A stretch of 64,000 nt of DNA, from contig NZ_JAQBNR010000021.1 in the NCBI RefSeq assembly GCF_028288465.1, forward strand, positions 1 to 64,000. Direction: 5' to 3'. A model generated the notes under the pieces. That model was not told the origin of the DNA and ran no database searches. It saw nothing but the letters and a program-made list of their open reading frames with translations. Position numbers and translations under genes: made by a program. Shown here one piece after another: positions 50,637 to 55,808 of this stretch (position 1 is the stretch's first letter; every line of letters begins with the position of its first letter). The stretch is from Ferruginibacter sp. Lineage in GTDB: Bacteria; Bacteroidota; Bacteroidia; Chitinophagales; Chitinophagaceae.

Positions 50637-50750
50637 CGGGTCAATAACCGCTCCTTGAAATAACAGCCTATATTATGACGGGTGCCAACAAAAGGCATCC
50701 TCTTTTGTTTTAAAGCCATGCCTCCAGTAACTTTGCACAAAACAGCACAC

Positions 50751-51917
50751 ATGAGCACTTCTATTGACACCTTAATTACCTCAACCAGCGATACTGCCCT
50801 GAAAACAATAGCCGAAAAAGTAAAACAACAAATCAGGATAACAGACGAAGAAGGCATCATTTTATTTGAAAGAGCCAGCCTGCCTTTTGCCGGCGCATTG
50901 GCCAATTTCATCCGGGAAAGATTGCATGGTGACACAACCTACTTCAACCGGAATTTTCATATTGAGCCTACGAATGTTTGCGTGTTTAGCTGTAAGTTTT
51001 GCTCCTATTCCCGTTTATATGCTAAAAAAGAAGAAGGATGGGAACTGAGTATTGACCAGATGCTGGACATTGTAAAAACCTACGATGGCAAACCAATAAC
51101 GGAAGTACATATAGTCGGCGGCGTGCATCCGAAAATGAATATGGATTATTTTATTGAACTGATGCAGAAAATCAAAGCGCATAGACCTGATCTGCACGTT
51201 AAAGCATTCACTGCAGTAGAACTGGATTATATGTTCCGCAAGGCAAAACTTTCTGTTGAGGAAGGAATGAAACGGTTGCATGATGCAGGCCTGGATAGTT
51301 TGCCCGGTGGCGGCGCAGAAATTTTTGCACCGGAAATAAGGGAACAAATTTGTGCTGATAAAGTGGATGGTGAAGGTTGGCTGAAGATACACGAAACGGC
51401 GCACCAGTTAGGTATGCATACCAACGCCACTATGTTGTATGGCCACATTGAAAAATATGAACATCGTATTGATCATATGCGCAGACTGCGGGAACTGCAG
51501 GATAAAACCGGCGGCTTTAATACCTTCATTCCTTTAAAATTCCGTAACCAGGATAACGACATGAGTTATGTTACAGAATCAACCATTACAGAAGATATGC
51601 GGCTGTATGCCATTGCCAGAATTTACCTGGACAACTTCCCCCACCTGAAAGCATACTGGCCAATGCTGGGCAGAGAAAATGCACAGCTCAGTTTGTCGTT
51701 CGGTGTAAATGATATTGACGGAACCATTGATGACTCTACCAAAATATATTCCATGGCAGGTAGCGAAGAACAAACCCCTGCGATGAGCACGGCCCAGCTG
51801 GTGACACTGATAAAACAGGTAAAAAGAAAACCTGTTGAAAGAGATACTTTATACAATGTAGTAAAAGATTATTCGCTGGAAACAGCAGCTTCAATACCAG
51901 ATGCCCAACTCAATTGA
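50751..51917 (+). CDS. mqnE: Aminofutalosine synthase (radical SAM, futalosine menaquinone pathway)
   Basis: NRNFHIEPTNVCVFSCKFCSYSR radical SAM Cys cluster; EVHIVGGVHPKMNMDYF; GGGAEIFAPEIREQIC; FIPLKFRNQDNDM. Confidence 0.93.
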   Translation: MSTSIDTLITSTSDTALKTIAEKVKQQIRITDEEGIILFERASLPFAGALANFIRERLHGDTTYFNRNFHIEPTNVCVFSCKFCSYSRLYAKKEEGWELSIDQMLDIVKTYDGKPITEVHIVGGVHPKMNMDYFIELMQKIKAHRPDLHVKAFTAVELDYMFRKAKLSVEEGMKRLHDAGLDSLPGGGAEIFAPEIREQICADKVDGEGWLKIHETAHQLGMHTNATMLYGHIEKYEHRIDHMRRLRELQDKTGGFNTFIPLKFRNQDNDMSYVTESTITEDMRLYAIARIYLDNFPHLKAYWPMLGRENAQLSLSFGVNDIDGTIDDSTKIYSMAGSEEQTPAMSTAQLVTLIKQVKRKPVERDTLYNVVKDYSLETAASIPDAQLN

Positions 51918-52900
51918 TGATACCTATGAACCCTGTAATGGATGTTATAATTATTGGCGGAGGACCTATAGGCCTGGCATGTGCGCTGGAAGCAAAGCGC
52001 AACAAACTGCATTACCTGGTTATTGAAAAAGGCCCACTGGTTAATTCCCTTTATAATTACCCGGATAATATGACTTTTTTTTCTACCTCTGAAAAACTGG
52101 AAATTGGTGGTGTACCTTTTGTGAGTAACAACATAAAACCTACCCGCAATGAATCACTGGAATACTACCGTCGTGTCACCGTTGCAAACGAATTAAAACT
52201 CCATCTTTTTGAAGAAGTAAAAACGCTTGTTAAAGAAAATGGCCAATTTACTATTCAAACCACCAAGACAAATTATACTGCCCGCAACGTTATAATGGCC
52301 ACCGGATTTTATGATCTGCCTTTTTTACTGAATGTGCCTGGTGAAGATTTACCCAAAGTAACTCACTATTATAAAGACCCGCACTTTTATGCTTTTCAGA
52401 AAGTACTTGTTGTTGGAGCCAGCAATTCTGCCGTAGATGCGGCCTTGGAGACTTTCCGGAAAGGTGCAGACGTTACGATAGTGGTAAGAGAAAAAGAAAT
52501 TGGTGAAAGGGTAAAATACTGGGTAAGGCCCGATATTGTCAACCGTATCAGCGAGGGATCAATTAAAGCCTTCTTCAATTCAACAGTGGCTTCTATACAC
52601 GAAAAAACAGTGGACATTAGTACACCGGAAGGATTGATAACCATTGACAATGACTGGGTGATTGCCATGACCGGCTACCAGCCGAACCTTGCTTTTCTTG
52701 AGCGAATAGGTGTTGAATTATCCGATGATACAATAAGAAAACCCAACTATAATGCCGATACGCATGAAAGCAATATTAAAGGAATTTACCTGGCAGGTGT
52801 AATATGCGGTGGTATGAATACGCATAGCTTGTTTATCGAAAATTCAAGGGAACACGCTGTTAAAATTATTGATAATATAGTAAGCAATCAAGGCTGCTAA
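51917..52900 (+). CDS. ypdA: YpdA-family putative bacillithiol disulfide reductase (FAD/NADPH)
   Basis: DVIIIGGGPIGLACALEAKRNKLHYLVIEKGPLVNSLYNYPDNMTFFSTSEKLEIGGVPF; TGATG overlap with mqnE. Confidence 0.88.
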   Translation: MIPMNPVMDVIIIGGGPIGLACALEAKRNKLHYLVIEKGPLVNSLYNYPDNMTFFSTSEKLEIGGVPFVSNNIKPTRNESLEYYRRVTVANELKLHLFEEVKTLVKENGQFTIQTTKTNYTARNVIMATGFYDLPFLLNVPGEDLPKVTHYYKDPHFYAFQKVLVVGASNSAVDAALETFRKGADVTIVVREKEIGERVKYWVRPDIVNRISEGSIKAFFNSTVASIHEKTVDISTPEGLITIDNDWVIAMTGYQPNLAFLERIGVELSDDTIRKPNYNADTHESNIKGIYLAGVICGGMNTHSLFIENSREHAVKIIDNIVSNQGC

Positions 52901-52945
52901 CACAGATGTGCCAAGGCAATAACGCAGTATAGTTTGTAAATGCAA

Positions 52946-52992
52946 AAGGTTGAACACAGAAAGACATATTTTGTCATCCTGTGTTCAACCTT
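52946..52992. terminator. Strong bidirectional terminator between ypdA and microprotein cluster
   Basis: Perfect 14-bp arms AAGGTTGAACACAG ... CTGTGTTCAACCTT, followed on + by a T-rich tract. Confidence 0.85.
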
Positions 52993-53042
52993 ACTTTTTT
53001 TGTTTAATATTTTTTATTCTTGTCGTCTGCAAACAGTTTTAA

Positions 53043-53159
53043 TTAGTTTGCAAATAGGATGTATAAAACCAAATACACAGAAGAAATAGCGGTAAGAGTT
53101 AATCCAAATTTTCTTATGTTAGCTTCCTGATGTGTAGTAGCATTGTAAATATGTTCCAT
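53043..53159 (-). CDS. Microprotein paralog 1 (38 aa, single TM)
   Basis: Minus strand reads MEHIYNATTHQEANIRKFGLTLTAISSVYLVLYILFAN*; conserved with two adjacent copies; not in supplied ORF track (too short). Confidence 0.85.
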   Translation of the reverse strand: MEHIYNATTHQEANIRKFGLTLTAISSVYLVLYILFAN

Positions 53160-53246
53160 TTTAATGAGTTTTAATGCTATGTTATTGAAATGCTTAGTTA
53201 AGGTCATCAATTGATTTCCGGACCTTAATTTATAGTCACCCCAGTA

Positions 53247-53363
53247 TTAGTTTGCCAACATGATATATAAAGCAAAGTACACTGATGCTGCTGTGGTAAG
53301 TGCTAATCCAAATCTTCTGATTGCAACTTCCTGTTTTGTGATAGCATTGTAAATCTGTTCCAT
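53247..53363 (-). CDS. Microprotein paralog 2 (38 aa, single TM)
   Basis: Minus strand reads MEQIYNAITKQEVAIRRFGLALTTAASVYFALYIMLAN*; 33/38 identical to paralog 3. Confidence 0.88.
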   Translation of the reverse strand: MEQIYNAITKQEVAIRRFGLALTTAASVYFALYIMLAN

Positions 53364-53473
53364 TTTCCTGAGTTTTAAAAGATGAGTTGAGTTTTTGTTG
53401 TTGTGGTATTAAATCCTGTTGTGTTAAAAGCTTTTTGGAGTCTTAAAATTTTATCGTTGCTGAGCAGATATTT

Positions 53474-53590
53474 TTAATTGGCCAGCATAAGGTATAAAGC
53501 AAAATATACTGAAGATGCGGCTGTAAGCGCTAATCCAAATCTTCTGATTGCAGCTTCTTGTTTTGTGACGGCGTTGTAAATTTGTTCCAT
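53474..53590 (-). CDS. Microprotein paralog 3 (38 aa, single TM)
   Basis: Minus strand reads MEQIYNAVTKQEAAIRRFGLALTAASSVYFALYLMLAN*; same length and start context as paralogs 1 and 2. Confidence 0.88.
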   Translation of the reverse strand: MEQIYNAVTKQEAAIRRFGLALTAASSVYFALYLMLAN

Positions 53591-53782
53591 TTTCTTAGGT
53601 TTTAGTTGTTTAAAGTTGTGTGTGTTGTTAGTATTAAAATCGATACAATTGTTATTATAACTTGTTCTGCTTTTAAATTTTTTAAGGGCAATAGTTTGCC
53701 ACGCTGCAGTTGCAGATAGAAAAATAGCTACAAAAAAATTAGATTTTTAACTCCTTAAGTATTGATTTATCCCGGTAATCAA

Positions 53783-54169
53783 TTAAAAAATCACCACATT
53801 CTGACCAAGTGCATTGATAGCAGAACTGTTGTCCATTGTTACAATGCGGTAGTTAACTACGCCTGAAGTTGTTTTAATGTTATCTGAAAAGTGGTAAGCG
53901 TCATTGCTTTCACCCATTAAAATTGCTACTGTTTTAAATTCGCCGCCATTGATGCTTTTTTCAATCAGGTAAGAAGTACCTGTAGTTTCATAACCTGCAT
54001 TCCAGCCTAGACTAATTTTACCCGCATTTTTTAAGGTAACCTTCAAGGCGTTACTGCTTTTAAAAGAGATAACCGCTTTAGAAGCTGATACCAATTTCAC
54101 AGGTTTTAGTGTAGCAAAAGACGAATGGCTAATTACGATGGCAATGAGGAGAGTAATAATCTGTTTCAT
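53783..54169 (-). CDS. Small secreted protein (128 aa)
   Basis: Signal peptide MKQIITLLIAIVISHSSFA; fn3-like tail (SLGWNAGYETTGTSYLIEKSINGGEFKTVAIL...YHFSDNIKTTSGVVNYRIVTMDNSS). Confidence 0.8.
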   Translation of the reverse strand: MKQIITLLIAIVISHSSFATLKPVKLVSASKAVISFKSSNALKVTLKNAGKISLGWNAGYETTGTSYLIEKSINGGEFKTVAILMGESNDAYHFSDNIKTTSGVVNYRIVTMDNSSAINALGQNVVIF

Positions 54170-54824
54170 GTTTTCTTGAGTTAGGGTTAAAATCGTTTTA
54201 ATCAGGGGTAATGATTGCTACGATTGCGATACAAACATACTGCGGGTATTTATACTACCAAAACTTTTCGTCGAAAAGGTTAGTAGAAGTACGAAAATTG
54301 ATATAGTAGTTTCGCTACAGCATAAATTAAACGATTATAATAGTTCTAAAGAACTACTATTTTACCTATTAATTATCAACGGGTTACAGTTACATTTTCT
54401 ATTGAGATATGTACGTGGATTCTGCAATCCGGAATTTGCCAAAAAAAATATTTTTTTTTAAAACAGTAAAAAAGCTGCGAAAAGCTGCGGTATTTTACCC
54501 GGTAAATTTACTACCTGGTCGAATTTTCTTTTGCTTTTTTGTAAAAAATTGCCCTTTCAGGAACACTTTGATGGTAAAACTACCTGGCTATAAGTACAAC
54601 AAAAAAGACATGTTAGGCGTGATTGGTGAATATTATCTAAGGAGCTGGTGAAATTAACTACAGCAAATACTGCAATTATTTCCTTTTACTAAATAATGCT
54701 CACAGAATTATGTGAAGGCTTCGTGATTACAGTTTCCGATTCGATATAAAATGAATCGAATTTCTATAATGTACCAAGGGCGCTAACCCACACCAGGGAT
54801 TGGGGCCTTGCAAAAACCGATCAT

Positions 54825-55808
54825 GTGCAACTGCATTACAAGCGGACAGCAAATTCGTTGTCCGTTTTTTCGATTCATATGCAACCTCCAGTTGATTTGT
54901 ATTATGTTATTCTAAACGGGCCACAGTTTGTCGCTAAAAAGCCGTATTATGCAGCCATGGGGCCTGTTTACTTTCCGAATGCAGATTTAGCGTATTTAAC
55001 CGTATACAGTATTGCAGCTATTCAGCAAGCATTCGACAGCATTACCAAAGATTTTGAAATAGAATTTAATTATCCGCAGGGTGGTTGCCAGCAACGGGCA
55101 CAAATTATGTCCATGCTTTTGTCTAAGAAATTCAACACAGATCATTGTAAAGTCTGGCTGTTTCCGCCAGTTGCTTTGTACATAGGAGACTATAGAACGT
55201 TGTATATAGAAGACATCAATCACCTTACTCCTGACAACAGGATTGAATGGAACTACCATGTTGCGCCTGCGGTGCAAGTACAAATAGATGACCGTATTGA
55301 GACCATGGTACTGGATCCTTCTATCAACAACCACCGGCCGATGTTGTTGCACGAGTGGTTCGCCGCCATTGGAAACAGCGATCAAAGCAAATACAGTTTT
55401 TTACTGCCAGATAAATATTTTTTTTATTGCTGTTACAACAGCAGTAATACGCTTTCTACAATTTTCGACGGAACTTTTTCCAACTTTGAGAATAATATCA
55501 AAGACGATTTGACCATGGAAAAGGGATTGGCCATTAACGATATCGCCATCAAAATTTTCCATAAGCATATTGAACCATTGAAATCATCGAATGAAGAAAG
55601 TGATAAAATAAGACTACAGGATCTGAAAGATATCTTCGGCAACACTTCCGCATTGGATCTGCTCTTTTCGCAAAATATCAGCGGAACAACGAATAATACT
55701 ACTCACCGGTATGTGATCAGTAACTACAGCGATATTATCAATGAAGCAAGGATATTATTTAACGAAAGACTGACTTACTGGACAAAAATTACCAATACGT
55801 TACTTTAA
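54825..55808 (+). CDS. Putative protein-glutamine glutaminase-like (deamidase) domain protein
   Basis: GGCQQRAQIMSMLL (Cys), WNYHVAPAVQV (His), MVLDPSINNHRPMLLHEWF (Asp) in the order of protein-glutaminase catalytic residues; start GTG 54825 or ATG 54879. Confidence 0.7.
   Translation: MQLHYKRTANSLSVFSIHMQPPVDLYYVILNGPQFVAKKPYYAAMGPVYFPNADLAYLTVYSIAAIQQAFDSITKDFEIEFNYPQGGCQQRAQIMSMLLSKKFNTDHCKVWLFPPVALYIGDYRTLYIEDINHLTPDNRIEWNYHVAPAVQVQIDDRIETMVLDPSINNHRPMLLHEWFAAIGNSDQSKYSFLLPDKYFFYCCYNSSNTLSTIFDGTFSNFENNIKDDLTMEKGLAINDIAIKIFHKHIEPLKSSNEESDKIRLQDLKDIFGNTSALDLLFSQNISGTTNNTTHRYVISNYSDIINEARILFNERLTYWTKITNTLL

What the first reader, a model, noticed from the sequence alone, without database searches (positions are those of the whole stretch)
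53043..53590. Tandem triplicated family of 38-aa single-TM microproteins missed by the ORF track
Three minus-strand ORFs, all exactly 117 nt, encode MEHIYNATTHQEANIRKFGLTLTAISSVYLVLYILFAN, MEQIYNAITKQEVAIRRFGLALTTAASVYFALYIMLAN and MEQIYNAVTKQEAAIRRFGLALTAASSVYFALYLMLAN. Copies 2 and 3 are 33/38 identical and copy 1 is 26/38 identical to copy 3. Many differences fall at silent or conservative positions, which suggests selection on the protein. Each start has a similar leader (TAAAACTCATTAAAATGGAA, TAAAACTCAGGAAAATGGAA, TAAAACCTAAGAAAATGGAA). Intergenic spacers (87 and 110 bp) look unrelated, so these are genes rather than a plain DNA repeat. Predicted layout: a short polar N-terminus with RR/RK just before a hydrophobic helix of about 20 residues that ends at the C-terminus with AN. 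A strong terminator (52946-52992) lies downstream. I recognise no named family. Possible roles (inference): small membrane regulator, type I-like toxin, bacteriocin-like or signalling peptide, or subunit of a membrane complex.
Basis: partly seen in the sequence, partly recalled or inferred. Interest (0 to 1): 0.87.

Follow-up and report, generated by a model that had tools for sequence, protein, structure and literature searches.

The report
Genus-restricted tiny membrane protein family
Three neighbouring stretches encode near-copies of a 38-residue membrane protein; they are real genes of a small, previously undescribed protein family found only in a few Ferruginibacter-type species, probably acting by packing one helix against another membrane protein, though the job is not yet known.

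Summary
Three minus-strand ORFs (A 53474-53590, B 53247-53363, C 53043-53159) encode 38-aa single-helix proteins. Sequence shared between copies ends at the CDS plus a 14-nt leader. A and B differ mostly at silent sites (dN 0.06, dS 1.1; permutation P<5e-5), so the protein is selected. Two corrections: copy C is frameshifted in the only close relative (F. paludis), and the "downstream terminator" has its T-run on the other strand, serving the convergent mqnE-ypdA operon. The family is larger than the window. A fourth, 41-aa paralogue lies elsewhere in this genome and in F. paludis. Three more 41-aa members occur in three further species of the genus, each a free-standing gene with its own hairpin-T terminator. 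In all, 5 of 93 genus genomes have it; none was found outside the genus in several hundred family and order genomes. Pfam, NCBIfam, PHROGs and PADLOC have no family for it. Members share N-in topology (predicted), a Bacteroidota-type initiation leader and one conserved helix face (I, G, small, Y, Y). Best reading: a stand-alone bitopic microprotein acting by helix packing on a partner (AcrZ-like in mode). Function is inferred, not shown. A type I toxin is a weaker rival.

The parts
53474..53590 (-). copy A, 38 aa MEQIYNAVTKQEAAIRRFGLALTAASSVYFALYLMLAN
   Evidence: intact orthologue at L005:6001-6117; purifying selection against B
53247..53363 (-). copy B, 38 aa MEQIYNAITKQEVAIRRFGLALTTAASVYFALYIMLAN
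   Evidence: intact orthologue at L005:6228-6344
53043..53159 (-). copy C, 38 aa MEHIYNATTHQEANIRKFGLTLTAISSVYLVLYILFAN; intact here, frameshifted in F. paludis
53591..53604 (-). 14-nt initiation leader of A, TAAAACCTAAGAAA (A at -13, -12, -6, -3)
   Evidence: positions match the positive determinants in F. johnsoniae (PMC6847099)
53364..53377 (-). 14-nt initiation leader of B, TAAAACTCAGGAAA
53160..53173 (-). 14-nt initiation leader of C, TAAAACTCATTAAA
53783..54169 (-). 128-aa protein with signal-peptide-like N-terminus, same strand, 192 bp upstream of A; possible first gene of the transcript
   Evidence: orthologues L100 and L101 have no small ORF of this family behind them
54232..54262 (-). 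Bacteroidota-type promoter TTTG-N19-TATGTTTG before the 128-aa gene; nearest consensus promoter upstream of A-B-C
   Evidence: identical in F. paludis; TTG-N20-TATATTTG-like site at the same place in L100 and L101
52946..52992 (+). hairpin terminator of the convergent mqnE-ypdA operon; at most a weak terminator for the small genes
   Evidence: T-run on the + strand only

Best explanation
A-B-C are real genes of a small, genus-restricted family of bitopic inner-membrane microproteins of 38-41 aa. SHOWN: protein-level selection on A and B, homologues in five species, stand-alone gene layout with dedicated terminators at three of the other loci, a strong initiation context, and one conserved helix face. 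INFERRED: the polar, mostly cationic N-terminus stays in the cytoplasm and the last ~20 residues cross the membrane, ending flush with the periplasmic side. The conserved face (I15, G19, L22, S/A26, Y29, F/L30, Y33 in window numbering) packs against the transmembrane helix of a partner protein, or against a second copy, and so changes the activity or stability of a membrane protein, in the manner of AcrZ with AcrB. Duplication into A, B and C probably raises dose or lets copies diverge; C is becoming dispensable. The partner is unknown.
For: Silent-site bias between A and B and between other members (G751-G354: 12 amino-acid changes against 18.0 expected, P 0.0016). A fourth paralogue (G000:C14:40192-40314) is conserved in F. 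paludis with 3 silent and 2 conservative changes. Three further free-standing 41-aa members are each followed within 25 nt of the stop by a hairpin-T terminator. Scores separate cleanly: intact members at E<=3.1e-19 (3.8e-13 for the frameshifted copy), everything else at E>=0.0039. All members have A at -12 and -3, positions that promote initiation in Bacteroidota (PMC6847099). AlphaFold gives one helix over residues 2-37, mean pLDDT 89. In all seven distinct sequences the hydrophobic segment is C-terminal, with net charge 0 to +4 before it and almost no charge after its start. Identity has a 100-degree periodicity along the TM helix (P 1e-4; 0.002 on the first four sequences). Precedent for the mode: AcrZ-AcrB (PMC7267776; PMC11539335).
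Against: No partner is indicated: the loci share no common neighbour (ABC exporter and sugar-type transporter beside the fourth paralogue; a YihY-like gene upstream of G751 and G354; the 128-aa gene and mqnE-ypdA here). The family is patchy (5 of 93 genus genomes), so it is not essential to the genus. The conserved face would also suit self-association, including a toxin oligomer. No expression data. The periodicity test uses only seven related sequences and a segment chosen by eye.
Confidence: 0.5

Rival explanations
1. Type I toxin: a tandem family of small hydrophobic toxins (Ldr, Ibs, Zor in layout), each silenced by an antisense RNA, that depolarises the membrane when released.
For: Size, hydrophobicity and tandem duplication are the very features used to find ZorO (PMC8309996). 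Patchy distribution and short stand-alone genes.
Against: Similarity between copies stops 14 nt before the start and at the stop, so no antitoxin gene was duplicated with each copy; the spacers are unrelated and drift faster (6-9% between species against 3% in the genes). The start regions of A, B and X are less structured than shuffles (z +1.4, +2.2, +0.8), the reverse of the occluded start of ZorO. No Rfam match, no family match. The charge sits before the helix, not after it as in most type I toxins.
Confidence: 0.15
2. Constitutive accessory subunit of a large membrane complex (as CydX, KdpF or CcoQ are), with several isoforms.
For: Tail-like single TM with a conserved packing face; the initiation context suggests good output.
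Against: Such subunits usually sit in the operon of their complex and are widespread (general knowledge); these are stand-alone and absent from most of the genus.
Confidence: 0.17
3. General membrane-stress microprotein acting on the bilayer rather than on one partner, as proposed for the 27-aa YohP.
For: Small membrane proteins are often stress-induced, and YohP changes lipid composition, fluidity and membrane potential (PMC12719787).
Against: Conservation of individual residues on one helix face argues for specific helix contacts.
Confidence: 0.13
4. Chance ORFs or young non-functional ORFs born from AT-rich intergenic DNA.
For: Very short, restricted to one genus, one copy frameshifted in a relative.
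Against: dN/dS of 0.05 for A-B with dS above 1; members in five species; dedicated terminators at three other loci.
Confidence: 0.05

Closest known systems
AcrZ and similar stand-alone bitopic regulators (MgtS, MgrB, SafA as a loose class)
   Same: Around 50 aa or less, one TM helix, stand-alone gene, helix suited to pack on a partner
   Different: No sequence match in Pfam, NCBIfam or PDB sequences; no partner known; tandem triplication
Type I toxins Ldr, Ibs, ZorO
   Same: Small hydrophobic proteins, tandem copies, chromosomal
   Different: No duplicated antitoxin region, open start region, cationic end before rather than after the helix
YohP (27 aa, E. coli)
   Same: Small single-helix membrane protein
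   Different: Shorter, no 15-20-residue polar N-terminal arm; no similarity known (not tested directly)

Membership tests
Type I toxin-antitoxin | small hydrophobic single-TM protein | tested here: met
   38-41 aa, best 19-residue hydropathy 1.7-2.1, one helix
Type I toxin-antitoxin | antisense or divergent antitoxin RNA kept with each copy | tested here: inconclusive
   repeat unit is CDS plus 14 nt only; no consensus Bacteroidota promoter inside 52900-53800 on either strand; no RNA data
Type I toxin-antitoxin | structured leader that hides the start | tested here: not met
   z +1.4 (A), +2.2 (B), +0.8 (X); only C is slightly structured, z -0.9; true transcript starts unknown
Type I toxin-antitoxin | match to a described toxin family | tested here: not met
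Type I toxin-antitoxin | overexpression is toxic and the RNA rescues | not testable with these tools
   needs experiment
Stand-alone bitopic membrane regulator (a mode, not a sequence family) | translated as a free-standing single-TM protein | tested here: inconclusive
   selection, leader and dedicated terminators point to it; no Ribo-seq
Stand-alone bitopic membrane regulator (a mode, not a sequence family) | conserved packing face on the TM helix | tested here: met
   100-degree moment, P 1e-4, face I G L/I S Y L/F Y
Stand-alone bitopic membrane regulator (a mode, not a sequence family) | binds and modulates a membrane protein | not testable with these tools
   no partner known
Ferruginibacter MEQIYNA-type family defined here | 38-41 aa; I4, acidic residue at 12/15, I15/18, G19/22, Y29/32, Y33/36 | tested here: met
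   alignment A5; one exception at the acidic position is D instead of E

The most novel reading that the evidence does not exclude
A genus-born membrane microprotein family that controls a membrane protein through a G/S/Y helix face, in which tandem copies have diverged to address different partners or conditions.
Probability: 0.2. Interest if true: 0.5.

Novelty: new member of a known kind. Interest (0 to 1): 0.33.

Why it matters
It adds a defined family, with seven distinct sequences to align, to the poorly known small membrane proteome of Bacteroidota, and shows that such families can be recognised by silent-site bias, Bacteroidota-type initiation leaders and dedicated terminators even when restricted to a few species. 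The conserved helix face gives named residues to test.

Tried and rejected
Single-sequence searches of 299 family genomes found nothing outside the own genome; only the complete genus survey with a profile brought out three more members, so absence in sampled searches is weak evidence. Weak profile hits elsewhere (E 0.0006-0.1): those I translated lie inside long ORFs or in frames without an aligned start and stop and were taken as chance; the best, E 5.6e-4, is a TM stretch inside a 663-aa frame. In one search and part I read loci with minus-strand matches in the wrong orientation; redid them. Viral contigs, plasmids and phages: none. Position next to mqnE-ypdA was tested as a clue: 13 other genus genomes with the ypdA-like gene show no small ORF of this family beside it, as far as their contigs reach. 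Two orthologues of the 128-aa gene likewise. An antisense ORF that looks conserved was rejected: its third codon positions coincide with those of the sense frame, it has fewer silent changes, and a stop appears in copy C. A shared upstream 12-mer was no better than in shuffles (58 against 55-59). PDB profile search: only a chance hit. One search failed on a script error and was rerun.

Full report
WHAT IS THERE. The three ORFs exist exactly as described: A 53474-53590, B 53247-53363, C 53043-53159, all on the minus strand, in the order A, B, C in the direction of transcription. The repeated unit is the 117-nt gene and the 14 nt before it; the spacers are unrelated. A 128-aa gene with a signal-peptide-like start lies 192 bp upstream on the same strand (53783-54169).

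SELECTION. Between A and B, 12 codons differ silently and 5 change the residue; random placement of the same changes gives 12.9 residue changes on average and never as few as 5 in 20,000 trials. NG86 dN/dS is 0.059/1.13 (A-B) and 0.22/1.31 (A-C). The frame used is the only one of the six that is open throughout all three copies with such a bias. Divergence between the window genome and F. paludis is 3.4% in A and in B, 6.4% in spacer A-B and 9.3% plus indels in spacer B-C. Since dS between A and B is about ten times that between the species' orthologues, the duplication is older than the species split, unless gene conversion has blurred the picture.

COPY C. In F. paludis A and B are intact, but C has lost one base at about codon 9 and is out of frame. 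One assembly was seen, so a sequencing error is possible. C is also the most divergent copy and shows the weakest selection against B.

A FAMILY BEYOND THE WINDOW. A weak hit in the same genome proved to be a free-standing 41-aa ORF in an intergenic region, MKKIYEKIYSSSKKELGIKAYGMLITTLSAAYLLAYIFIVH, here called X. It aligns end to end with A-C (scores above all of 5,000 shuffles that keep each half's composition), has the same TAAAAC starting at -14, and is conserved in F. paludis. A profile search of all 93 genus genomes held gave three more 41-aa members: G465 MKKIIDNIYTPATTESFIKAFGLFMTTISALYFIAYIVLAH, G751 MEKIITKIKGSSKRELLIASFGVMLFSASTVYLCAYMATAG, G354 MEKIITKIHGTSKRDLLIASFGLMLFCFSTAYLLTYMVKVG. 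With these in the profile (A5) all intact members score E<=3.1e-19 and nothing else in 287 relatives scores below 0.0039. So 41 aa is likely the older form, and A-C carry a 3-residue deletion. The sampled searches of 399 family and 399 order genomes used earlier, narrower profiles and found no member outside the genus.

GENE STRUCTURE. G465, G751 and G354 have an intrinsic terminator within 25 nt of the stop codon: each is the last, and probably the only, gene of a short transcript. G751 and G354 share an upstream gene (YihY/BrkB-like, recognised by eye) and about 100 nt of well conserved upstream DNA. In the window I found no consensus Bacteroidota promoter or intrinsic terminator between the 128-aa gene and C. 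The nearest consensus promoter, TTTG-N19-TATGTTTG, precedes the 128-aa gene and is identical in F. paludis; three strict matches occur in the whole window with 1.2 expected, so its place and conservation, not its mere presence, are the argument. Whether A-C are read from it is open. Orthologues of the 128-aa gene in two other species lack the small genes. The hairpin at 52946-52992 belongs to the convergent operon of mqnE (TIGR03700) and a ypdA-like gene (TIGR04018).

TRANSLATION. A, B, C and X have A at -13, -12 and -3, and A-C also at -6; the other three members have A at -12 and -3. These are the positions that promote initiation in Flavobacterium johnsoniae (PMC6847099). The start regions of A, B and X are unstructured.

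PROTEIN. AlphaFold gives one helix, residues 2-37, mean pLDDT 89. The hydrophobic stretch is C-terminal and the cationic residues precede it, which by the positive-inside rule (general knowledge) places the N-terminus in the cytoplasm. Invariant or near-invariant residues in the family are M1, I4, an acidic residue at 12, I15, G19, S/A26, Y29 and Y33 (window numbering). Along the TM helix, identity has a 100-degree moment (P 1e-4) with one face made of I, G, L/I, S, Y, L/F, Y.

MECHANISM. The pattern fits a bitopic protein whose helix packs on another helix. I prefer a stand-alone regulator acting on a partner membrane protein (as AcrZ acts on AcrB, PMC7267776), at about 0.5. Accessory subunit, type I toxin and lipid-acting stress protein follow. 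The toxin reading suffers from the lack of a duplicated antitoxin region and from open start sites, but tandem small hydrophobic genes are a known search signature for such toxins (PMC8309996), so it keeps 0.15. No step beyond 'selected, very probably translated, membrane-spanning helix' is shown.

NOVELTY. No family in Pfam, NCBIfam, PHROGs or PADLOC, none in Rfam, no PDB relative by sequence. It is a new family of a known kind, the small bitopic membrane protein. Literature searches turned up no description of it, but only open-licence papers were searched.

Noticed in passing
54825-55808 (+): Protein matching Gln_deamidase_2 (protein-glutamine glutaminase fold), Pfam E 3.7e-22; NCBIfam equivalog matched below its cut-off.
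   Followed up: no
54232-54262 (-): Perfect Bacteroidota promoter TTTG-N19-TATGTTTG; the 131 nt compared upstream of the 128-aa gene are identical in F. paludis, while the small-gene spacers diverge by 5-9%.
   Followed up: partly
50682-52900 (+): mqnE (aminofutalosine synthase) directly followed by a YpdA-type bacillithiol disulfide reductase-like gene and a strong terminator.
   Followed up: partly
window upstream of A and B; L025 upstream of the fourth paralogue: TTTAATAC occurs about 50 nt before A and B and about 114 nt before X, but only 9 times in the whole window on both strands; seen post hoc, and a general 12-mer test was not significant.
   Followed up: partly
L118 and L119, about 1390-1500: About 100 nt before the small gene are nearly identical in two species, better kept than the second half of the gene: probable promoter and 5' leader.
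   Followed up: no
53260-53352 and 53478-53579 (+): Antisense ORFs look conserved between copies only because their third codon positions coincide with those of the sense frame.
   Followed up: yes
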